Source of the DNA: Gammaproteobacteria bacterium
GTDB lineage: Bacteria; Gemmatimonadota; Gemmatimonadetes; Longimicrobiales; Gaopeijiaceae
Length of the DNA: 64,000 nucleotides
Assembly (NCBI GenBank): GCA_028819075.1
Contig: JAPPMM010000065.1
Coordinates: 19,067-83,066, forward strand
Direction of reading: 5' to 3'
Shown here in pieces: positions 1 to 8,311 of the stretch. The notes below the pieces were generated by a model. It had not been told where the DNA came from and made no database searches. It was given only the letters and a program-made list of their open reading frames with translations. The first letter of the stretch is position 1. The number at the start of each line of letters is the position of its first letter. A program made the translations under genes and the position numbers.

Positions 1-135
1 ATCCGGACCGAGGGCGGATACTCCATCATCTTCGACCTTTCCGGCCAGGCGATCGTCTCCGCGGATCCCGAACTCAACCTGACCCAGCAGGTCATCGACC
101 GGCTGATGCAGAATACGCCGCCCGGCAACCGGTGA
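1..135 (+). CDS. OmpH/Skp-family periplasmic chaperone, C-terminal fragment
   Basis: Only the last 44 codons are in the window; the gene begins before base 1. The peptide runs through YSIIFD, IVSADPELNLT and QQVIDRLM to a TGA at 133-135. This matches the usual end of the OmpH/Skp family, where a beta strand and a D-x-T-xx-V-xx-L motif close the protein. Skp-type proteins hold outer-membrane proteins soluble in the periplasm. They are often encoded next to lpxD, as here: the lpxD start lies 57 bases downstream. The family assignment rests on this tail and on the neighbour, so it is good but not certain. Confidence 0.65.
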   Translation: MRTEGGYSIIFDLSGQAIVSADPELNLTQQVIDRLMQNTPPGNR

Positions 136-191
136 GCCCGCCGTCCTCGACGACGGAGCCCGCCACAAGAGCAGCAGGACAGGAGACGACC

Positions 192-1226
192 ATGGACCTT
201 GCAGGAGCCGCCGCTCTCACCGGCGCGCGCCTGGAGGGGCAGTCCGGCTGGACCTTCGATCGAGTCGTGCCGGTGGACCAGGCCGGGCGCGGCAGGCTCG
301 GTTTCCTCGGCGACCGGCGCTACCTCAAGCACCTGGACTCGTCCTCGGCCGAGGCCCTGCTGGTGTCGGAGAGCCTCTCCGCCTCCGTTCGCGACCGCGT
401 GCCGAACCTGTTGATCGCCGGTCGGCCGCGCCTCGCCCTGGCCCGGTTGCTGGATCGGCTCCATCCCCCGGAGGAAGCGCTTCCGGGGATCCATCCCACG
501 GCCGTGCTGGGCAGGGGCGCCAGGCTCGGCCGGGACGTGCGCATCGATGCCTGCGCGGTGCTGGAGGAGGATGTCGAGGTCGGTGACCGCGCGCACATCG
601 GCGCCCACGTATCGGTGGGCGCGGGATCGCGCATCGGCGCCGACTCGCGCCTGCACCCGCATGTCGTGCTGTATCCGGGAACCCGGCTGGGTCGGCGCGT
701 CGTCCTGCATGCCGGGACCGTCGTGGGCTCCGACGGCTTCGGCTTCGTGATGAGCGAGGGCGGCCATGAGAAGATCCGCCAGGTAGGCGGCTGCATCATC
801 GGCGACGACGTGGAGATGGGCGCCCATTGCTGCGTCGACCGGGGATCCATCGGGGACACCGTGATCGGCCCGGGCACCAAGACCGACAACCTGGTCCACG
901 TCGCCCACAACGTGAACGTGGGCGACCACTCCCTCCTGATCGCCCAGGTGGGCATCTCCGGTTCCACGACCCTGGGAAAGGGCGTGGTGATGGCGGGGCA
1001 GTCGGGCGCGACCGGGCACCTCGAGATCGGCGACGGGGCACGCGTGGCCGTGCAGACCGGAGTGATCAGGGATGTCCCCGCCGGGACCAGCGTGGTCGGA
1101 TTTCCCGGGCGCCCGCGCGCGGAGTTCTGGAAGTCCATGGCGGCGATGCGCAGGCTCCCGGCGCTGAGGGAGCGGGTGAAGGAGCTGGAGGAACGCCTGT
1201 CCGCGCTGGAGGGGAAGGACGAGTGA
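192..1226 (+). CDS. lpxD: UDP-3-O-(3-hydroxyacyl)glucosamine N-acyltransferase LpxD
   Basis: LpxD adds the N-linked hydroxyacyl chain from acyl-ACP to UDP-3-O-acyl-GlcN, the third step of lipid A synthesis, in the cytosol. The 344-residue protein has an N-terminal uridine-binding domain (about 1-95), a left-handed beta-helix of hexapeptide repeats (about 95-300) and a C-terminal helix with a short coiled coil (RERVKELEERL). The DGFGF segment and the catalytic His region LVHVAHNVNVG are both present. I chose the ATG at 192 because AGGAG lies at 181-185 and LpxD proteins normally begin just before this point; an in-frame GTG at 132 would overlap the upstream stop. It heads the lipid A run and is followed after 22 bases by lpxC-fabZ. 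Confidence 0.96.
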   Translation: MDLAGAAALTGARLEGQSGWTFDRVVPVDQAGRGRLGFLGDRRYLKHLDSSSAEALLVSESLSASVRDRVPNLLIAGRPRLALARLLDRLHPPEEALPGIHPTAVLGRGARLGRDVRIDACAVLEEDVEVGDRAHIGAHVSVGAGSRIGADSRLHPHVVLYPGTRLGRRVVLHAGTVVGSDGFGFVMSEGGHEKIRQVGGCIIGDDVEMGAHCCVDRGSIGDTVIGPGTKTDNLVHVAHNVNVGDHSLLIAQVGISGSTTLGKGVVMAGQSGATGHLEIGDGARVAVQTGVIRDVPAGTSVVGFPGRPRAEFWKSMAAMRRLPALRERVKELEERLSALEGKDE

Positions 1227-1248: not shown

Positions 1249-2532
1249 ATGAGCGGGAGCCGGCAGCGCACGATCGGCCGGGAGGTGAGCCTCGAGGGCA
1301 TCGGCATTCACCTGGGAGAGCATGCGGCCGTGTCGTTCCATCCGGCCGAACCCGGCGCCGGCATCGTCTTCCGGCGCATCGATCTGCCCGGCAAGCCCGA
1401 GATTCCCGCGACCCTGGATCACGTCGTGGACACCGAGCTGGGAACGAGCATCGGCCGGGGCGAAGCCCGGGTGCGCACCGTGGAGCACCTGATGGCGGCG
1501 TTGGGCGCCAGCGGGACTACCAACGTGCGGGTGGACGTTTCCGGACCCGAGATCCCCATCCGGGACGGGAGCTTCCTGGACTTCCTGGATGCCCTGGACG
1601 CAGCGGGAGTGGTGGAACAGAAAGCGGCCGCACGGGTGGCCGAACTCGATGAGCCGGTCGTGTTGCGCGCTACCGGCGGCCAATCGTACATCCTCGCGCC
1701 CGGCGCGGGACTGCGCATCACCGCGACCATCGACTTCGAACACCCCGCGATCGGCCGCCAGACCGGATCGTTCGACAGCTTCGGCGCCGGTTTTCGGGCC
1801 GACATCGCTCCGGCGCGCACCTTCGGCTTCCTCGCCGACGCGGAGGAGCTGCATGCACGCGGCCTCGCGCAGGGGGCATCGCTGGCCAACACCATCGTTC
1901 TGGACGACGAGGGCGTGGCCAACGACGGACTGCGGTTCCCCGACGAATTCCTGCGCCACAAGATCGGGGACGTGCTGGGCGATCTGACGCTGCTGGGCAG
2001 CCGGCTGCAGGGCCATCTGGTGGTGGAGCGGCCGAGTCACAGCGGTAACATCGAACTCGGCCGGCTGGTCGCGGAGCAGCTCGACCGCGCGCCTGCCGCG
2101 CCCGCGTTCGATGTCGAGCGGATTCGCAGCTACCTGCCGCACCGCTATCCGATGCTGCTCGTGGACCGGATCGCGGCTGTGGAAGGCGGTCGCCACATCA
2201 CGGGCATCAAGAACGTCACCATCAACGAACCCTTCTTTCAGGGACACTTTCCCGGACGGGCCATCATGCCGGGCGTGCTCATCGTGGAGGCGATGGCCCA
2301 GATCGGCGGGCTTCTGCTCATCGATTCCGTGGGCAACCCCCGCGACAAGCAGGTCTATCTCATGTCCATACAGAAGGCGCGCTTCCGGCGGCCGGTGGTG
2401 CCCGGCGACCAACTGGTGTGCGAGGTGGAGCTGCTGCGCTTCCGGCGCGGGACCTGCAAGATGAGAGGCAAGGGATACGTGGACGGGATGCTGGCCGCGG
2501 AGGCCGAATTCATGGCGAGGGTTGTGGACTGA
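1249..2532 (+). CDS. lpxC/fabZ: LpxC-FabZ fusion: UDP-3-O-acyl-GlcNAc deacetylase plus 3-hydroxyacyl-ACP dehydratase
   Basis: One 427-residue protein joins two enzymes. Residues 1 to about 275 are LpxC, the zinc deacetylase that commits UDP-acyl-GlcNAc to lipid A. The zinc ligands H80, H237 and D241 and the catalytic H264 fall at nearly the E. coli positions. Residues about 288-427 are FabZ, with catalytic H333 in GHFPG and E347 in VEAMAQ, which dehydrates 3-hydroxyacyl-ACP in fatty acid elongation. The two compete for the same hydroxyacyl-ACP pool, so the fusion links lipid A and phospholipid supply. Such fusions are known in Bacteroidota and some other diderms. LpxA starts at the base after its stop. 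Confidence 0.96.
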
Positions 2533-3345
2533 ATGGGGGATTCGCTGCTGGACCCTTCGCGAACCGTTCAGCCCGATGTCCACCCGACGGCGATCGTGGA
2601 CGACGGGGCCGTGCTGGGAGCGGAGGTGGTCGTAGGGCCCTATGCGATCGTTGGCCCGGGCGTGCGCGTCGGCGCGAGAACCCGAATCGGCCCACACGTC
2701 CTGATTGAACGGGATACCTCCGTGGGCGAGGGGTGCCGCCTTGGCCAGGGCGCGGTGCTGGGCACCGATCCGCAGGACCTCAAGTACAAGGGCGAGCGTT
2801 CCGAGCTGATCGTCGGCGACCGCACCGTCGTCCGCGAATACGCGACCCTCAACCGGGGCTCGGCCGCGTCCGGGCGCACGGTGGTGGGCAGCGACTGTCT
2901 ACTCATGGCGTATGTCCACGTGGCCCACGACTGCCGCCTGGGGAACCACGTCGTACTGTCCAACTCGGTCAACATGGCCGGCCACGTCACAATCGAGGAT
3001 TGGGTCATCGTCGGGGGCCTCGTGGGGATCCACCAGTACGTGCGCATCGGTGCCCATGTCTTCGTTGGCGGCGGCGCACGCGTCTCGAAGGACGTTCCGC
3101 CCTACTGCCGGGCCGCGGGGGGACGTCCAAGACTGTACGGGCTCAACACGGTCGGGCTGGAGAGGCGCGGGTTTCCGGAGGGTACCCGCCGGCATCTCAG
3201 GCAGGCATACCGCATCCTGTTCCAGTCCGGGCTGAACGTGTCCCAGGCCATGACCCGCGTCGAGGCCGACGTCGAGCAGATTCCGGAGGTTCGCCACCTT
3301 CTCGACTTCATCCGCAACAGCGCACGCGGATTAACCCTCGGATGA
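2533..3345 (+). CDS. lpxA: acyl-ACP--UDP-N-acetylglucosamine O-acyltransferase LpxA
   Basis: LpxA performs the first step of lipid A synthesis, moving a 3-hydroxyacyl group from ACP to the 3-OH of UDP-GlcNAc. The 270-residue protein is close to the usual 262. It shows hexapeptide beta-helix repeats over about residues 15-195, the catalytic His in VHVAHDCRLG, and a helical C-terminal domain ending in a LLDFIRNS segment. The ATG directly follows the lpxC-fabZ stop, and the lpxA stop overlaps the next ATG, so translation is probably coupled. The neighbouring oxidoreductase raises the question of whether the true acceptor is the 3-amino analogue of UDP-GlcNAc (see findings). Confidence 0.95.
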   Translation: MGDSLLDPSRTVQPDVHPTAIVDDGAVLGAEVVVGPYAIVGPGVRVGARTRIGPHVLIERDTSVGEGCRLGQGAVLGTDPQDLKYKGERSELIVGDRTVVREYATLNRGSAASGRTVVGSDCLLMAYVHVAHDCRLGNHVVLSNSVNMAGHVTIEDWVIVGGLVGIHQYVRIGAHVFVGGGARVSKDVPPYCRAAGGRPRLYGLNTVGLERRGFPEGTRRHLRQAYRILFQSGLNVSQAMTRVEADVEQIPEVRHLLDFIRNSARGLTLG

Positions 3346-4379
3346 ATCCGCCCACCCCGATCCGCATGGGGGTGGCCGGCGTCGGGAGCCTGGGGTTCCA
3401 TCACGCGCGGATTCTCGGCGATCTGCCGGAAGTCCGGATGGCGGGATTCTTCGATGTGGACGCGCGCCGGGCCGCGTTCGTGTCAAGGGAGCTCGGGCTT
3501 GCGCCGGCCCGCAGTCTGCCGGAGCTGCTGTCGGAGGTAGATGCGCTGGTGGTGGCGGTTCCCACCTACTCTCACGAGGAGGTGGCGCTCGCGGCGGCCG
3601 GGCGCGGTGTTCACCTTCTCATCGAGAAGCCCATCGCGCCTTCGCTCGAGGCCGCGGATCGCATCCTGGCCGCGGCCCGCCGGGCGGGCATCGTGGTGCA
3701 GACCGGGCATGTGGAGCGGTTCAACGGCGCGCTCCGGGCGGCGGCTCCGTACATCGACGCTCCGCTCTTCATCGAGTCGCAGCGCCTGGCGCCCTTTCGC
3801 CCCCGGGGCACGGACGTGGCCGTCGTGCTCGATCTGATGATTCACGACGTGGACCTGGTGCGCATGCTCGTGCAGGCGCCGCTGGCGGACATCGCCGCCG
3901 CCGGCATCCCGGTGCTGACTCCGTCGGTGGACATCGCCAACGCGCGCCTCACCTTCCGGAACGGGGCCGTGGCGAACCTGACCGCGAGCCGGGTGTCGAG
4001 CGAAGGGCAGCGCATGCTGCGGGTGTTCCAGCGGTCGGGATACCTGCGCGTCGATCTGGCGCGCGGGAGGGGAGAGTTCCTGCGGCTCCGGCGGGACCTG
4101 CCCGCCTTGCTTGAAGGCGTGCGGGAAGCCAGCGTGGAGGAAGGGAAGGGGGGACCGGACCCGAAGGCGGCTCCGGGGCTGGAGGACATCGTCGAGCGCA
4201 TTCCCTTCGAGGGTTTCCCTGAGGAACCGCTGCGGGTCGAACTCGAGGGGTTCAGGGATGCGGCGCTCGGGCGTTCGGATCCGGCCGTCTCCGGTGATGA
4301 AGGCCGGGCGGCTCTGGAGATCACGCTGTGCATCGAGAAGAGGATTCTGGACCATGTCGCTCATTCGCGTACGTCGTAA
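3342..4379 (+). CDS. Gfo/Idh/MocA-family oxidoreductase, possibly GnnA-like
   Basis: This 345-residue protein is an NAD(P)-dependent sugar oxidoreductase. It has an N-terminal Rossmann fold with GVAGVGSLGFHH near residue 10, the family's EKP motif in LIEKPIAPS, and a C-terminal alpha/beta substrate domain with the IHDVDL segment. Its start overlaps the lpxA stop (ATGA at 3342-3345). In Acidithiobacillus, a gene of this family (gnnA) lies between lpxA and lpxB and oxidises the 3-OH of UDP-GlcNAc before transamination by GnnB. Place and family fit that role, but no GnnB-type aminotransferase is in the window. The substrate is therefore inferred only. Confidence 0.85.
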   Translation: MNPPTPIRMGVAGVGSLGFHHARILGDLPEVRMAGFFDVDARRAAFVSRELGLAPARSLPELLSEVDALVVAVPTYSHEEVALAAAGRGVHLLIEKPIAPSLEAADRILAAARRAGIVVQTGHVERFNGALRAAAPYIDAPLFIESQRLAPFRPRGTDVAVVLDLMIHDVDLVRMLVQAPLADIAAAGIPVLTPSVDIANARLTFRNGAVANLTASRVSSEGQRMLRVFQRSGYLRVDLARGRGEFLRLRRDLPALLEGVREASVEEGKGGPDPKAAPGLEDIVERIPFEGFPEEPLRVELEGFRDAALGRSDPAVSGDEGRAALEITLCIEKRILDHVAHSRTS

Positions 4380-4488
4380 CCGCAAGAAGGACTGGATCGA
4401 CGCCAAGCGGGGCAAGCCCCCCACGAAGCTCATCGCCCTGCTGGTGGCGGTGCTGCTCGTCATCTGGTATCTGGGGTTCCGGTTCTGA
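4354..4488 (+). CDS. 44-residue single-pass membrane peptide in the lipid A run
   Basis: The peptide starts inside the end of the oxidoreductase gene (26-base overlap) and stops 3 bases before lpxB. It has a strongly basic N-terminus (RVRRNRKKDW), then a hydrophobic helix from about residue 25 to 40 (LIALLVAVLLVIWYLG) ending in FRF. That is the layout of a small inner-membrane protein with the basic end in the cytosol. It fills the only gap between two essential-type genes, which supports it being real. I recognise no family. An accidental open frame cannot be excluded at this length. Confidence 0.5.
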   Translation: MSLIRVRRNRKKDWIDAKRGKPPTKLIALLVAVLLVIWYLGFRF

Positions 4489-4491
4489 GCG

Positions 4492-5634
4492 ATGGCGCGC
4501 GACCCGGTGATCCTCATGCTCGCCGGGGAGCCCTCCGGTGACCTCCACGGGGCCGCCCTCGCCCGCTCGCTGCTCGACAAGTGGCCGTCCGCCCGGCTGC
4601 TGGGGCTGGGAGGCGAACGCATGGCCGCAGAGGGGGTCGAATGCATGGCGGGTCTCGATCGGCTTGCGGTCATGGGCTTCGCGGAAGTCGTGCGCCACCT
4701 CGGCTTCTTCCGGCGGCTCATGGGCCGGGTTCGCGCCGCGATGCATCGCCACGGTGTGAACCTCGTCATCCCGATCGACTATCCGGGGTTCAACCTGCGT
4801 GTCGCGAAATACGCCCGCGAGGTTGGCATCCGGGTGTTGTATTACATCGCTCCCCAGGTCTGGGCGTGGAGGCCGGCGCGCGCCCGGCGGCTGGCCCGCG
4901 ACACCGATCACGTCGCCGTGATTCTCCCCTTCGAGGCCGGATTTCTGCAGAGGGCAGGCGCGCGCGCGACCTTCGTGGGGCACCCGTTGCTCGAGCTCGA
5001 GCACGAGGTGCCGGCCCGGGCCGACTTCTGCCGCGCCCACGGTCTCGATGCGCGGCGGCCGCTGCTGGCGCTCTTTCCCGGATCCAGGCGCCAGGAACTC
5101 GACCGCCACCTGGAAGTGTTCCTGGGCACCGCCCGCCGGCTCGCGCGAGCGCGCCCCCAACTGCAGGCTGTGGTGGCGCGCGCTCCCGGTCTGCCCGCTC
5201 GCGCGTACTCAGGGGTGGCCGCCACCGTCGTCGACGATGGCCGGAGCCTGCTCCGTCATGCGCGCGCGGCGGTGCTGAAGTCGGGCACCTCCACCGTGGA
5301 GGCCGCGCTCGCGGGCGTACCCTTCGCCACCGCATACCGGACGCACCCGCTCACCTTCGCCCTTGCCCGCCGCCTGGTGCGCGTGGACCACATCGCCATG
5401 GCCAACCTCATCGCCGGCCGGCGGGTGGTGCCCGAACTGATTCAGCACGAAGCGACCCCGGCGAGGCTCGAGCGCGAGCTGCTCCCGCTCGTCGACGACA
5501 CGGAGGAGCGACGCGCCGTGGTCGCGGGGCTGGGCGAAGTCCGCCGAGCGCTCGGTTCGGCGGGCGCGGCCCGCAGGGTGGCCGCGATCGCGGAGTCCCT
5601 GCTGTTCCCGTCACAGCGGGCGGCGGCGGGATGA
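4492..5634 (+). CDS. lpxB: lipid-A-disaccharide synthase LpxB
   Basis: LpxB (glycosyltransferase family 19) joins UDP-2,3-diacylglucosamine and lipid X to give the beta-1,6-linked disaccharide at the inner face of the membrane. The 380-residue protein opens with the diagnostic AGEPSGDLHGA motif near residue 10. It also has the family segments IDYPGFNLR, YYIAPQVWAW and LFPGSRRQE, and the KSGTSTVEAAL segment near the C-terminus. Length matches the family (about 380). The stop overlaps the lpxK start as ATGA. Confidence 0.96.
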   Translation: MARDPVILMLAGEPSGDLHGAALARSLLDKWPSARLLGLGGERMAAEGVECMAGLDRLAVMGFAEVVRHLGFFRRLMGRVRAAMHRHGVNLVIPIDYPGFNLRVAKYAREVGIRVLYYIAPQVWAWRPARARRLARDTDHVAVILPFEAGFLQRAGARATFVGHPLLELEHEVPARADFCRAHGLDARRPLLALFPGSRRQELDRHLEVFLGTARRLARARPQLQAVVARAPGLPARAYSGVAATVVDDGRSLLRHARAAVLKSGTSTVEAALAGVPFATAYRTHPLTFALARRLVRVDHIAMANLIAGRRVVPELIQHEATPARLERELLPLVDDTEERRAVVAGLGEVRRALGSAGAARRVAAIAESLLFPSQRAAAG

Positions 5635-6671
5635 GACAGGCCGTGGAGGCGGGACTGGGCTGGGTGTGGGGGGCGTCCACCCGGCCGGCGGCGGCGGCCG
5701 GGCTGGCTCTGCTGCCGCTGGAAATGGCCTTCGCGGCGGGGGTGGCGGTCCGCAACCACCGCTACGACGCCGGACGGTTGCCGATCCGGTCGGCCGAGGT
5801 GCCGGTGGTGTCGGTCGGAAACCTGGCGGTGGGGGGGAGCGGCAAGACGCCTGTGGCGGCCTGGCTGGCCGCCTGGTTCCTGCGGCGCGGCGTGACCCCC
5901 GGCATCGTGACCAACGGGTACGGGCTCGACGAGATGCTGCTGCACCGGCAATGGAATCCCGAGGCGCCGGTCGCCGCCGATGGCCATCGGGCGCGTGCCG
6001 CCGCCGTTGTCGTGGAACGGGGCGCGCAGGTGGTGATCCTCGACGACGGCTTTCAGCACCGGGCCCTGGCGCGTGATCTGGATCTGGTGCTGGTCGCGGC
6101 GGAGCACCCTGTACCGCTGCGGCTTCTGCCGCGGGGGCCTTACCGGGAACCGGAGAAGGCCCTGGCGCGCGCGGGGGGTGTGATCGTAACCCGCCGAGTC
6201 GCTAGTTTTGGCGCGGCCCGGCGCCGAGCCCGGGCGCTGGAAGCGATGCACCGGCGGCGCTGTGCCCTTGTGAGCCTCGCGTTCTCGCGATGGAGCGATG
6301 TCGCGGGGGCTCCGGCCTCCGCTCCGACGGGCTCGGCGCTGGTCTTGTCAGGCATTGCGCGCCCGTGGGAGTTTCACGGGTTGCTGCAGCGGGAAATCCC
6401 CGGCATGGAGTTGGAGCCGATGATCTTCAGCGACCACCACTGCTACTCCGCGGCGGACATGGCCGCCATCGCGCGCCGCGCGCGCGGGCGCCCCGTCGTG
6501 ACCACCGCCAAGGATGCGGTGAAGCTGCCGCAGTTGGGCGAGCACGGGGTGGACGCGCGCGTCCTGCACCTTGAAGTCGTGGTCGAGAGGGGCCGGCGAT
6601 GGCTGGAAGACGCACTCGGTGAGCTGCCGGGGATCGTGCCGCCCAGCCTCGCGGGAAGGAGCGCCCGGTGA
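5631..6671 (+). CDS. lpxK: tetraacyldisaccharide 4'-kinase LpxK
   Basis: LpxK phosphorylates the 4'-position of the lipid A disaccharide at the inner membrane, giving lipid IVA. The 346-residue protein has an N-terminal hydrophobic region and a P-loop near residue 65 (GNLAVGGSGKTP). The family segment DDGFQHR follows, and the C-terminal part contains FSDHHCYS and TTAKDAVKL, both typical of LpxK. The start is fixed by the ATGA overlap with lpxB; the stop overlaps the GTG start of bshC. Confidence 0.95.
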   Translation: MRQAVEAGLGWVWGASTRPAAAAGLALLPLEMAFAAGVAVRNHRYDAGRLPIRSAEVPVVSVGNLAVGGSGKTPVAAWLAAWFLRRGVTPGIVTNGYGLDEMLLHRQWNPEAPVAADGHRARAAAVVVERGAQVVILDDGFQHRALARDLDLVLVAAEHPVPLRLLPRGPYREPEKALARAGGVIVTRRVASFGAARRRARALEAMHRRRCALVSLAFSRWSDVAGAPASAPTGSALVLSGIARPWEFHGLLQREIPGMELEPMIFSDHHCYSAADMAAIARRARGRPVVTTAKDAVKLPQLGEHGVDARVLHLEVVVERGRRWLEDALGELPGIVPPSLAGRSAR

Positions 6672-8311
6672 ACCTGGAGCTGCTCGTCGGCCATCCCTCC
6701 GGCTCCCGCCTGGTGGCCGACTACCTGACGCGGCGCCCCTCCGCCCTTGCCTTCTTCCAGGGCGACCCGACGCTTGCGGCCAGCTACACGGCCGCGGCCG
6801 AGGCGGTGGCGGCGCGCTTCGACCGCGCCGCCCGGGCCCGCGCCGTGGAGTGCGTCCACGCCCCCACGCCTGCGGTGCGGGCACGGCTGGATCGCCTGGT
6901 CGAGGAGGGTGGCTTCTTCGTCACCACCGGGCAGCAGCCCGGTCTCTTCACCGGCCCCCTGTACAGCGTCTACAAGGCGCTCACCGCGGTGCGACTGGCG
7001 GGCGCGCTGGAGGATGTCCTGGGAAGGCCCGTGATTCCCCTGTTCTGGGTGGCGTCCGAGGATCACGACTGGCGGGAGGTCGATCACACCTGGACCGTGA
7101 GCGTCTCCAACGAGCTGCGGCGCGTTGCACTCGCCGACGGTTCGGAGCGCGGGGACCGTCCCGTCCACCGCGTGCCGATGGGCGAAGCGATCGGGCCGGT
7201 GCTGGAGGAGTTTCTCTCGCTCTTTCCGGACAACGACTTCAAGCCCGCCTGCGCACGGCGTCTGCGTTCGGCGTACGCGCCCGGGAACTCGCTCGGCGAG
7301 GCCTTTACCCAGGTGCTCGCCGATTGGCTGGGGCCGCTGGGGATGGCCTTCGTCGACGCCTCTTCGCTCCCGCTCAAGCGCGCCTCGCGGAGGCTGTTCA
7401 CGGCGGTGCTGGACGGCGCGACCGAGCAGGAGGCGCTGCTGGGCAGAACCGCGGACCGGCTGAGGGCGGCCGGGTACCACGTACAGGTTCCCATTCTCGA
7501 CGGCGGGGTCAACCTGTTCTTCGAGGGAAGCTCGGGACGGGAGCGCGTGTACCGGAGCGGGGGCAACTTCCGGCTCAGGCACTCGCGCGAACTTCTTGCC
7601 CGCCGCCGGATCCTCGCCGAGTCGGATGCCGATCCCCGTGTGCTGAGCCCCAACGTTCTGCTCCGCCCCGTGGTCGAGGGCGCAGTGTTCCCGGTGGTAT
7701 CCTACGTCGCCGGACCGGGAGAAATCGCCTACTTCGCACAGCTCCGGGACCTGTTCGACCTCTGCGGGATCCGCATGCCGGTAGTCCACCCCCGGTTCTC
7801 GGTTACGGTCATCGAACCCAAGATCCGCAAGGTCCTCGACAAGCTGGACCTGTCCCTTCAGGACCTGGCTCGACCCTTCGGCGAACTCGCCGGACGCGTC
7901 GTGCAGGACGACGTACCCGAGGGCGTCCGTCAGGCACTTGCGGACTTGCGCGGGGGTATCGGCAGGGGCGTGGAGGAGCTGAGTCGCGCGGCGGCCACGC
8001 TGGATCCCACTCTGAAGGGACCCGCGAAGCACGTGCGCACGGTGGCCTTCGACGCACTCGAACAAATGCGGAAGAAGATCATCCACAGCCTTAAGCGGGA
8101 GAAGCAGACGAAGCTCCGCCAGCTCGAGAAGGCTCAGGTGCACCTGTATCCCCGGGGAGGTCCGCAGGAACGATCGTTGAACGCCTGCTACTACCTGATA
8201 CGCTACGGACGGGAATTCCTGGACGCGCTTCACGATCGTTTCTCAGTCCGGCTGGCCGGCGACGAGTCCCGCGCCGCGAACATCGCAGGTGTCGGGTCGC
8301 TCCGGGCCTGA
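6668..8311 (+). CDS. bshC: BshC, putative cysteine-adding enzyme of bacillithiol synthesis
   Basis: BshC is taken to join cysteine to glucosaminyl-malate in the last step of bacillithiol synthesis. The 547-residue protein matches the family in length (about 540) and carries its typical blocks: TTGQQPGLFTGPLY in the N-terminal nucleotide-fold domain, FWVASEDHDWREV, and a C-terminal YPRGGPQERSLNACYYL segment after a coiled-coil region. The GTG start at 6668 overlaps the lpxK stop (GTGA), placing it at the end of the lipid A run. bshA and bshB are not in the window. Bacillithiol is best known from Bacillota but also occurs in some diderm phyla. Confidence 0.92.
   Translation: MNLELLVGHPSGSRLVADYLTRRPSALAFFQGDPTLAASYTAAAEAVAARFDRAARARAVECVHAPTPAVRARLDRLVEEGGFFVTTGQQPGLFTGPLYSVYKALTAVRLAGALEDVLGRPVIPLFWVASEDHDWREVDHTWTVSVSNELRRVALADGSERGDRPVHRVPMGEAIGPVLEEFLSLFPDNDFKPACARRLRSAYAPGNSLGEAFTQVLADWLGPLGMAFVDASSLPLKRASRRLFTAVLDGATEQEALLGRTADRLRAAGYHVQVPILDGGVNLFFEGSSGRERVYRSGGNFRLRHSRELLARRRILAESDADPRVLSPNVLLRPVVEGAVFPVVSYVAGPGEIAYFAQLRDLFDLCGIRMPVVHPRFSVTVIEPKIRKVLDKLDLSLQDLARPFGELAGRVVQDDVPEGVRQALADLRGGIGRGVEELSRAAATLDPTLKGPAKHVRTVAFDALEQMRKKIIHSLKREKQTKLRQLEKAQVHLYPRGGPQERSLNACYYLIRYGREFLDALHDRFSVRLAGDESRAANIAGVGSLRA

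What the first reader, a model, noticed from the sequence alone, without database searches (positions are those of the whole stretch)
3342..4379. GnnA-like oxidoreductase between lpxA and lpxB with no aminotransferase partner
In Acidithiobacillus, gnnA and gnnB lie between lpxA and lpxB and make UDP-GlcNAc3N, giving lipid A with amide-linked chains at position 3. Here the Gfo/Idh gene holds that place and is coupled to lpxA, but GnnB is missing. Either the partner lies elsewhere, or the oxidoreductase has a different role in lipid A sugar chemistry.
Basis: partly seen in the sequence, partly recalled or inferred. Interest (0 to 1): 0.5.

Follow-up and report, generated by a model that had tools for sequence, protein, structure and literature searches.

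The report
Lipid A gene whose partner moved
A gene that probably helps build an unusual, amide-linked form of the outer-membrane lipid of a Gemmatimonadota-like bacterium looked as if it lacked its partner enzyme, but a likely partner sits elsewhere in the genome, and a change in a third enzyme of the same pathway suggests that this chemistry may be common in little-studied phyla.

Summary
'No partner' fails genome-wide: one full-length DegT aminotransferase lies on another contig. gnnA without a neighbouring gnnB is widespread in several phyla. In the window's family the DegT is present in 49 of 50 gnnA+ but 3 of 24 gnnA- genomes, and in the class of a Desulfobacterales genome in 86 of 126 against 3 of 68. 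Against this, 13 of 16 gnnA- genomes in other families of the phylum keep it. New here: one LpxB residue beside the donor-lipid groove (window Q122, E. coli S124) is Gln in 119 of 120 lpxB genes near gnnA but in 4 of 36 without gnnA nearby (otherwise Lys or Ser). Best reading: a split GnnA/GnnB pathway making UDP-GlcNAc3N, hence lipid A with amide-linked chains at position 3. No enzyme or lipid was tested; the DegT's relation to WbpE is unresolved, LpxA residues are uninformative, and gnnA losses are too few for a tree-corrected test.

The parts
132..1226 (+). lpxD
   Evidence: TIGR01853 1.1e-98
1249..2532 (+). lpxC-fabZ fusion
   Evidence: LpxC 3.4e-87 and FabA-like 1.2e-36 in one ORF; PRK13188 3.4e-137, 457.9 bits, just under its cut-off of 465
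2533..3345 (+). lpxA; conserved catalytic His and ruler Gly (residue roles recalled)
   Evidence: TIGR01852 1e-100; residue comparison
3342..4379 (+). gnnA-like dehydrogenase (NAD use recalled for the family); EKP 95-97, GHVERFN 122-128, RLAPFRPR 148-155, DLMIHD 164-169
4354..4488 (+). conserved 44-aa small protein with one hydrophobic span, unnamed, overlaps the end of gnnA
4492..5634 (+). lpxB
   Evidence: TIGR00215 2.1e-87; E. coli LpxB 5w8n/5w8s
4855..4857 (+). codon CAG of LpxB Gln122, the residue that varies with gnnA (motif P-Q-V-W-A-W)
5634..6671 (+). lpxK (start uncertain)
   Evidence: PF02606 1.2e-61

Best explanation
The window protein is the 3-dehydrogenase (GnnA) of a split GnnA/GnnB pathway. 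It would oxidise the 3-OH of UDP-GlcNAc with NAD. The 3-keto sugar would then be transaminated by the genome's only full-length DegT aminotransferase (378 aa, contig C17:164032-165165), acting as GnnB. LpxA would put the first 3-hydroxyacyl chain on the 3-amino group; LpxC, LpxD, LpxB (with Gln122 beside the donor acyl groove) and LpxK would complete a lipid A with a 2,3-diaminoglucose backbone and amide-linked chains at position 3. Shown here: gene content, operon order, phylogeny, co-occurrence and residue variation. Inferred: every enzymatic step and the final lipid structure. The two-step reaction is that reported for A. ferrooxidans, as summarised in passages of PMC8036547 and in section 13 of PMC5644692.
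For: (1) Closest solved structure is 7bvj (E 2.1e-49), far ahead of 3q2k (8.2e-7; WlbA by recall). Signature residues (ERFN, R..R, LDLMIHD, SR) match those of 22 gnnB-linked GnnAs with few or no exceptions in 27 orphans of other phyla and 16 Gemmatimonadota, and differ from the second Gfo/Idh types. (2) Own genome: one full DegT and no WlbA-like protein (24-31% hits only). (3) Co-occurrence in the window's family: DegT at E<=2e-73 in 49 of 50 gnnA+ genomes (29 of the 49 also placed in the clade on a tree) against GnnB-clade DegT in 3 of 24 gnnA- genomes. In another class: stand-alone DegT in 86 of 126 gnnA+ and 3 of 68 gnnA- genomes. (4) P0002, other Gemmatimonadota DegTs and 15 of 30 DegTs from orphan-gnnA genomes of other phyla form one clade (95/89). 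(5) LpxB residue: Gln in 119 of 120 lpxB genes near gnnA and 4 of 36 others; Lys in both separate gnnA-less groups of family f1. (6) Precedents: M. loti gnnA and gnnB lie apart from each other and from lpx (PMC5644692, section 13 read); Legionella lipid A is GlcN3N (PMC7867332, passages), and L. adelaidensis has a GnnA-like gene directly before lpxB, no DegT annotated in the 9 kb shown, and Gln in LpxB.
Against: Outside the window's family the DegT does not follow lpx gnnA: of 16 gnnA- lpxA+ genomes there, 13 have it at E<=1e-115 (absence of gnnA seen at the locus only for G223 of those 13). Phylum-wide a DegT at E<=1e-30 is in 239 of 246 gnnA+ and 25 of 39 gnnA- genomes with lpxA. In those families it lies beside WlbA-like or 3c1a-like Gfo/Idh genes in 7 of the loci read, and near nucleotide-sugar dehydrogenases also in family f1, a WbpABE-like setting. 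The DegT is not shown to be GnnB: WbpE falls between it and lpx-linked GnnB in the denser tree (85/94; the tree that keeps WbpE out is not rejected, p-AU 0.096), and the clade node used has support 60. Some gnnA+ genomes have no full DegT: G006 (99% complete), G206, G092, G287 and G207 (only a 70-position fragment), and 4 of 40 re-searched in the other class, where 40 of 126 gnnA+ genomes lack the stand-alone DegT. Twelve genomes of one f7 genus have gnnA and only a weak DegT match (four of these DegTs placed outside the clade). Three f1 gnnA- genomes keep the DegT, and four gnnA- genomes keep Gln in LpxB. LpxA acceptor residues do not differ. The tree needs about 4 gnnA changes, so paired sign tests cannot reach significance (p 0.5).
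Confidence: 0.7

Rival explanations
1. P0001 and the C17 DegT make a 3-amino sugar (UDP-GlcNAc3N or its uronic acid) for a surface polysaccharide in a WlbA/WbpE-like pathway; the place of gnnA in the lpx operon is incidental. Or the DegT alone serves such a pathway.
For: The DegT gene lies near a nucleotide-sugar dehydrogenase in the window's family, and beside WlbA-type (PDB 3q2k E 1.7e-131) or 3c1a-type Gfo/Idh genes in other families. Outside family f1, 13 of 16 gnnA- genomes keep the DegT. WbpE is not excluded as its near relative. In 5 or 6 of 15 orphan-gnnA genomes of other phyla its neighbours look like sugar genes.
Against: gnnA overlaps lpxA and stays with lpx genes across phyla. LpxB varies with gnnA. 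P0001 is closer to GnnA than to WlbA. In 9 of 15 orphan-gnnA genomes the DegT is not in an evident sugar cluster, by my reading of ORF beginnings.
Confidence: 0.15
2. The orphan GnnA acts without any aminotransferase, for example making a 3-keto or 3-epimer sugar nucleotide, and the DegT correlation is indirect.
For: lpx-embedded gnnA persists in some genomes where no full DegT was found (G006, G206, G092, G207, G287; G328, G400, G402, G425).
Against: Most are drafts, and only 7 of 246 gnnA+ lpxA+ genomes of the phylum lack a DegT match at E<=1e-30, within what incompleteness could give. LpxB has Gln in those examined, and GnnA residues are kept in those aligned.
Confidence: 0.06
3. GnnA works as in the best explanation, but another aminotransferase (another DegT clade or a different fold-type I enzyme) is its partner in this genome or in some lineages.
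For: Twelve genomes of one genus of family f7 have gnnA but only a weak DegT match, four of them placed outside the clade (L207-L210); 36 of 40 gnnA+ genomes of the other class without the stand-alone clade have other DegTs. The Legionellaceae genome of L148 has a DegT in the WbpE group (L353).
Against: The window's genome has just one full-length DegT, and that DegT follows gnnA in its family.
Confidence: 0.08

Closest known systems
GnnA/GnnB of Acidithiobacillus ferrooxidans (UDP-GlcNAc3N synthesis)
   Same: Gfo/Idh dehydrogenase of the GnnA type in the lpxA-lpxB interval; a DegT aminotransferase of the sugar C3 kind in the genome.
   Different: The aminotransferase gene is on another contig and belongs to a clade separate from lpx-linked GnnB. 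The A. ferrooxidans locus itself was not fetched; its layout is from the finding and recall.
Split gnnA and gnnB of Mesorhizobium loti MAFF303099
   Same: Putative gnnA and gnnB lie apart from each other; its lipid A backbone is reported as identical to the GlcN3N one of Phyllobacterium trifolii (PMC5644692, abstract and section 13 read).
   Different: In M. loti both genes are also away from the lpx cluster; here gnnA stays in the lpx operon.
Legionella gnnA-lpxB arrangement
   Same: GnnA-like gene directly upstream of lpxB, no DegT annotated in the 9 kb shown, LpxB Gln; Legionella lipid A is GlcN3N (PMC7867332, passages).
   Different: Different phylum; lpxA is not in the Legionella stretch shown.
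WlbA/WbpB with WlbC/WbpE (UDP-GlcNAc3NA pathway; roles recalled)
   Same: 3-dehydrogenase plus DegT 3-aminotransferase logic; related DegT family.
   Different: No WlbA-like protein found in this genome; the window gene has GnnA residues.

Membership tests
GnnA (UDP-GlcNAc 3-dehydrogenase) | Gfo/Idh/MocA two-domain protein | tested here: met
   PF01408 1.2e-23 and PF22725 4.1e-9
GnnA (UDP-GlcNAc 3-dehydrogenase) | Groups with 7bvj and gnnB-linked GnnA, away from WlbA and other Gfo/Idh | tested here: met
   94 GnnA-like loci and 7bvj on one side of 11 outsiders, SH-aLRT 93, under the tool's starred level. The window protein is outside the nested 36-row group that holds 7bvj.
GnnA (UDP-GlcNAc 3-dehydrogenase) | Active-region residues of gnnB-linked GnnA conserved | tested here: met
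   Position by position in 22 gnnB-linked, 27 orphan and 16 Gemmatimonadota proteins; which of them are catalytic was not tested
GnnA (UDP-GlcNAc 3-dehydrogenase) | gnnB adjacent | tested here: not met
   No DegT match on the window's contig. Not treated as defining, because M. loti has the genes apart (PMC5644692).
GnnA (UDP-GlcNAc 3-dehydrogenase) | NAD-dependent oxidation of UDP-GlcNAc at C3 | not testable with these tools
   Needs an enzyme assay
GnnB (3-aminotransferase), candidate P0002 | DegT/DnrJ/EryC1 family with a lysine in the FFPTK motif (PLP role recalled) | tested here: met
   PF01041 1.4e-103; K195
GnnB (3-aminotransferase), candidate P0002 | Groups with lpx-linked GnnB to the exclusion of WbpE | tested here: inconclusive
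   Sister at 99/89 in 99 rows; WbpE falls between at 85/94 in 77 rows, alternative not rejected, p-AU 0.096
GnnB (3-aminotransferase), candidate P0002 | Occurs with gnnA | tested here: inconclusive
   Met in family f1 (49 of 50 against 3 of 24) and for a related clade in another class (86 of 126 against 3 of 68); not met in other families of the phylum, where 13 of 16 gnnA- genomes keep it. Shared ancestry not removed.
WlbA/WbpE pathway | WlbA-type 3-dehydrogenase in the genome | tested here: not met
   Own Gfo/Idh proteins match the WlbA-type queries (L181, L183, L184) only at 24-31%
GlcNAc3N-selective LpxA | Acceptor-site residues of a selective LpxA | tested here: inconclusive
   Named positions aligned to the 2jf2 chain are the same or nearly so in 30 gnnA+ and 20 gnnA- relatives; the L. 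interrogans sequence was not compared

The most novel reading that the evidence does not exclude
The LpxB residue next to the donor-lipid groove (Gln, against Ser or Lys) is a specificity determinant, or at least a genomic marker, for 3-N-acylated (GlcN3N) against 3-O-acylated (GlcN) precursors. By this marker GlcN3N lipid A, made by an lpx-embedded GnnA and a roaming GnnB, would be the usual backbone in many little-studied phyla, with the E. coli type a derived or parallel state.
Probability: 0.45. Interest if true: 0.75.

Novelty: new variant of a known kind. Interest (0 to 1): 0.55.

Why it matters
It gives the likely answer to the finding's question (the partner lies elsewhere) and turns the layout into a testable prediction: phyla with no lipid A structure known to me (Gemmatimonadota, Omnitrophota, Zixibacteria and others) should make amide-linked, 2,3-diaminoglucose lipid A. 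The LpxB residue, if it holds, would let the lipid A backbone type be read from one motif in metagenomes and gives a concrete target for asking how LpxB tells amide-linked from ester-linked sugars.

Tried and rejected
LpxA acceptor-site comparison: no informative difference between gnnA+ and gnnA- relatives. Scan of LpxD, LpxC-FabZ, LpxA, LpxB and LpxK for columns that follow gnnA: LpxD gave no scorable column. By my score two other columns ranked above LpxB 122 (-0.67): LpxK 668 of its ORF (-0.77, a variable column) and LpxA 256 (-0.70, Phe or Leu, mixed in other gnnA+ genomes). LpxB 122 was kept because it is invariant in the gnnA+ sets; it was thus picked after looking at many columns, and the loci of other phyla and the named species are the check made afterwards. 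Independent-pairs tests: too few gnnA losses. The first DegT tree made P0002 a sister of GnnB with strong support; the denser tree weakened this, so I do not claim strict orthology. One of the two one-clade tests split the WbpE group unfairly and is disregarded. Literature: one search with Gemmatimonas and lipid A showed no lipid A structure paper for the phylum (listing; passages of PMC11651109). No paper linking an LpxB residue to GlcN3N was noticed in searches (listings), nor in passages of PMC5785501. PMC3087551 has no occurrence of 'gnn'. Passages of PMC12228718 and PMC5006992 on Bdellovibrio did not give the backbone sugar.

Caveats on counts: one search scored at most 7 candidates per genome and at most 6. 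Of the 24 gnnA- genomes of family f1, lpxA followed by lpxB without gnnA was read in 21; 2 (G163, G224) are cut by contig ends there, and G108 was not looked at; G296 (no gnnA, DegT or lpxA match) was left out. G101 is counted gnnA- because its match (8.8e-32) is not at the lpx locus. In one search three f11 genomes (G001, G007, G009) were labelled gnnA- because their lpx locus lacks it (in G009 the contig ends soon after lpxA), although one search found matches in them. In one search two genomes with split copies (G336, G454) were counted as having the DegT. Note 5 says 19 of 22 Lys; the right figure is 18 of 21. 'gnnA-less' for the 14 named species means none within about 2.5 kb of lpxB where the record allows. 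Eight of the 47 gnnA-alone loci end within 1.5 kb of gnnA. Fisher p values ignore shared ancestry; the LpxB one used 118 of 119 and 4 of 37, mended to 119 of 120 and 4 of 36. Odds changed on recheck: best explanation 0.75 to 0.70, polysaccharide rival 0.13 to 0.15, other-partner rival 0.06 to 0.08, because I had left out the 13 of 16 gnnA- genomes outside f1 that keep the DegT.
Full report
What is there. The window begins with a lipid A operon: lpxD, an lpxC-fabZ fusion, lpxA, a Gfo/Idh gene, a 44-aa ORF, lpxB and lpxK, followed by bshC. The Gfo/Idh gene at 3342-4379 overlaps lpxA by ATGA. Its nearest solved relative is 7bvj (E 2.1e-49), which I recall as Acidithiobacillus ferrooxidans GnnA; the next hit is at 9.1e-17, and 3q2k, recalled as WlbA, at 8.2e-7.

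The organism. Two named records, an uncultured Gemmatimonadetes bacterium (L106) and a Gemmatimonadaceae bacterium (L115), carry a like operon, and their GnnA proteins fall in one 16-row branch with the window's (SH-aLRT 100). I take the phylum to be Gemmatimonadota; this is an inference.

The partner. A search of the genome with PF01041 gave one full-length DegT protein (C17:164086-165144, E 1.5e-103) and nine weak partial matches. This protein, P0002 (378 aa), is closest in the PDB to 7b0d, 2oga (DesV), QdtB and, a little lower, WbpE; the last three I recall as C3 aminotransferases. Its gene is downstream of a nucleotide-sugar dehydrogenase, between two ORFs that I read as TPR-like. No WlbA-like dehydrogenase was found in the genome (24-31% hits only), so P0001 is the only evident 3-dehydrogenase of this type there.

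Co-occurrence in the phylum. In 297 genomes, GnnA-like matches were found in 247, P0002-like in 270 and LpxA in 285, at E<=1e-30. Twenty genomes without a GnnA match were read at the lpx locus: in 20 of 20 gnnA is missing next to lpxA; 17 of these (family f1) and G223 keep lpxB downstream. In family f1, GnnA is in 50 genomes and the DegT at E<=2e-73 in 49 of them (G287, 86% complete, lacks it); 29 of the 49 were also placed in the clade on a tree (28, G033). Of 24 gnnA- genomes, 13 have no DegT at E<=1e-30, 8 have DegTs that fall outside the GnnB clade (node support only 60 in that quick tree), and 3 (G152, G248, G269) have the clade. Under a loss-only reading of the tree I count about seven DegT losses in f1, all on gnnA- branches (my own count). 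Shared ancestry is strong, and the tool's paired sign test had only 4 pairs (p 0.5).

A result against this. Outside f1 the pattern does not hold: of 16 gnnA- genomes with lpxA, 13 (mostly family f4) have the DegT at E<=1e-115. In the f4 and f5 loci read, 7 have their own second Gfo/Idh next to the DegT (4 of the 3c1a type, 3 of the WlbA type). So in those families the DegT may have another partner, and the dependence on lpx gnnA is a claim about f1 only. Phylum-wide, a DegT at E<=1e-30 is in 239 of 246 gnnA+ and 25 of 39 gnnA- genomes with lpxA.

Co-occurrence elsewhere. A collection scan gave 80 GnnA loci from many phyla. With 14 further phylum loci, 47 of 94 have gnnA near lpx genes with no DegT nearby (8 of them close to a contig end), and 22 have both. 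In 29 orphan-gnnA genomes of other phyla, 28 have a DegT and 27 have one at E<=1e-80 to a Geobacter lpx-linked GnnB. In a tree, 15 of 30 DegTs of these genomes and 18 Gemmatimonadota DegTs form one clade (95/89); the other 15 fall elsewhere, four of them in the WbpE group, among these the Legionellaceae genome's. By my reading of ORF beginnings, 9 of the 15 are not in an evident sugar cluster, the others are or may be, and two of those have a 3c1a-type Gfo/Idh next door. In 194 genomes of the class of L149's genome (a Desulfobacterales bacterium), gnnA is in 126; the stand-alone DegT (bimodal, E<1e-135, plus two split copies) is in 86 of the 126 and in 3 of the 68 others. So there the DegT almost implies gnnA, but gnnA does not imply this DegT. 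Of the 40 without it, 36 have another DegT and 4 have none at E<=1e-20. All 20 gnnA loci of this class that I read have gnnA just before lpxB and no DegT beside it within the stretch.

The LpxB residue. Comparing Lpx proteins of gnnA+ and gnnA- relatives, one position in a conserved motif stood out: window LpxB Q122 in P-Q-V-W-A-W (it ranked third by score, see Tried and rejected). Counting loci once, it is Gln in 50 of 50 Gemmatimonadota gnnA+ loci, 20 of 20 of the Desulfobacterales-class loci, 30 of 30 loci of other phyla with gnnA and no DegT, 18 of 19 with both, and in Legionella adelaidensis: 119 of 120. The exception, L084 (Thr), has a second lpxA on the other strand, and it is the lpxB beside that one which has Thr. 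In lpxB genes without gnnA nearby it is Lys in 18 and Gln in 3 of 21 f1 relatives, Gln in G223, and Ser in 10 and Lys in 4 of 14 named species: Gln in 4 of 36. A tree built without LpxB places the two gnnA-less groups of f1 apart; one is 3 of 3 Lys, the other 15 Lys and 3 Gln of 18. The E. coli residue is S124 by alignment; in the E. coli structure paper, V125, W126 and W128 line the groove into which docked donor acyl chains extend (PMC5785501, passages). Fusobacterium animalis has Lys, and the lipid A published for F. nucleatum ssp. animalis has a glucosamine backbone with O- and N-linked primary chains (PMC8048906, passages). Legionella, with Gln, has GlcN3N lipid A (PMC7867332, passages). 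This ties gnnA to the lipid A backbone rather than to a polysaccharide. It also suggests that lineages such as G006, G206, G092 and the f7 genus, where no GnnB-clade DegT was found, still make the same kind of lipid A, since their LpxB has Gln.

What remains open. The DegT clade is not resolved from WbpE. LpxA residues give no answer. No enzyme or lipid was measured. Species known to make GlcN3N with unlinked genes (Brucella, Mesorhizobium) were not available for the LpxB test.

Verdict. The gene is real and GnnA-like; the missing partner is most likely the DegT gene on another contig. Split gnnA and gnnB genes are already in print for M. loti (PMC5644692, section 13). The breadth of the gnnA-in-operon, gnnB-elsewhere layout and the LpxB residue pattern are what I did not see in the papers listed by searches, of which I opened the few named here.

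Noticed in passing
window 4354-4488 (+): A 44-aa protein with one hydrophobic span (begins MSLIRVRR, ends near IWYLG) lies between gnnA or lpxA and lpxB: a tblastn hit at E<1e-3 in 26 of 29 gnnA+ and 22 of 22 gnnA- loci examined of family f1, also in f2, f3 and f7 loci; no Pfam match. A conserved small protein of the lipid A operon, function unknown.
   Followed up: partly
L178-L180, L190 and L181, L183, L184: In other families of the phylum the DegT gene is beside a nucleotide-sugar dehydrogenase and a second Gfo/Idh gene: WlbA-type in f5, 3c1a-type in f4. G223 (f4) has no lpx gnnA but keeps the DegT and LpxB Gln; a dehydrogenase of the f4 type might replace GnnA there.
   Followed up: partly
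G118, G123, G174 (family f7, genus g81): No LpxA match at E<=1e-30 in any of three genomes of this genus, one of them a single contig: a possible loss of lipopolysaccharide.
   Followed up: no
L084: An Ectothiorhodospiraceae locus with lpxA-gnnA-DegT and, on the other strand, a second lpxA beside an lpxB with Thr in the motif; a possible hybrid-backbone lipid A, as suggested for two lpxA genes in Capnocytophaga (PMC3342949, passages).
   Followed up: no
window 6668-8311: bshC (bacillithiol synthesis) follows lpxK directly; bshC is also downstream of lpxK in 15 of the 17 f1 loci.
   Followed up: no
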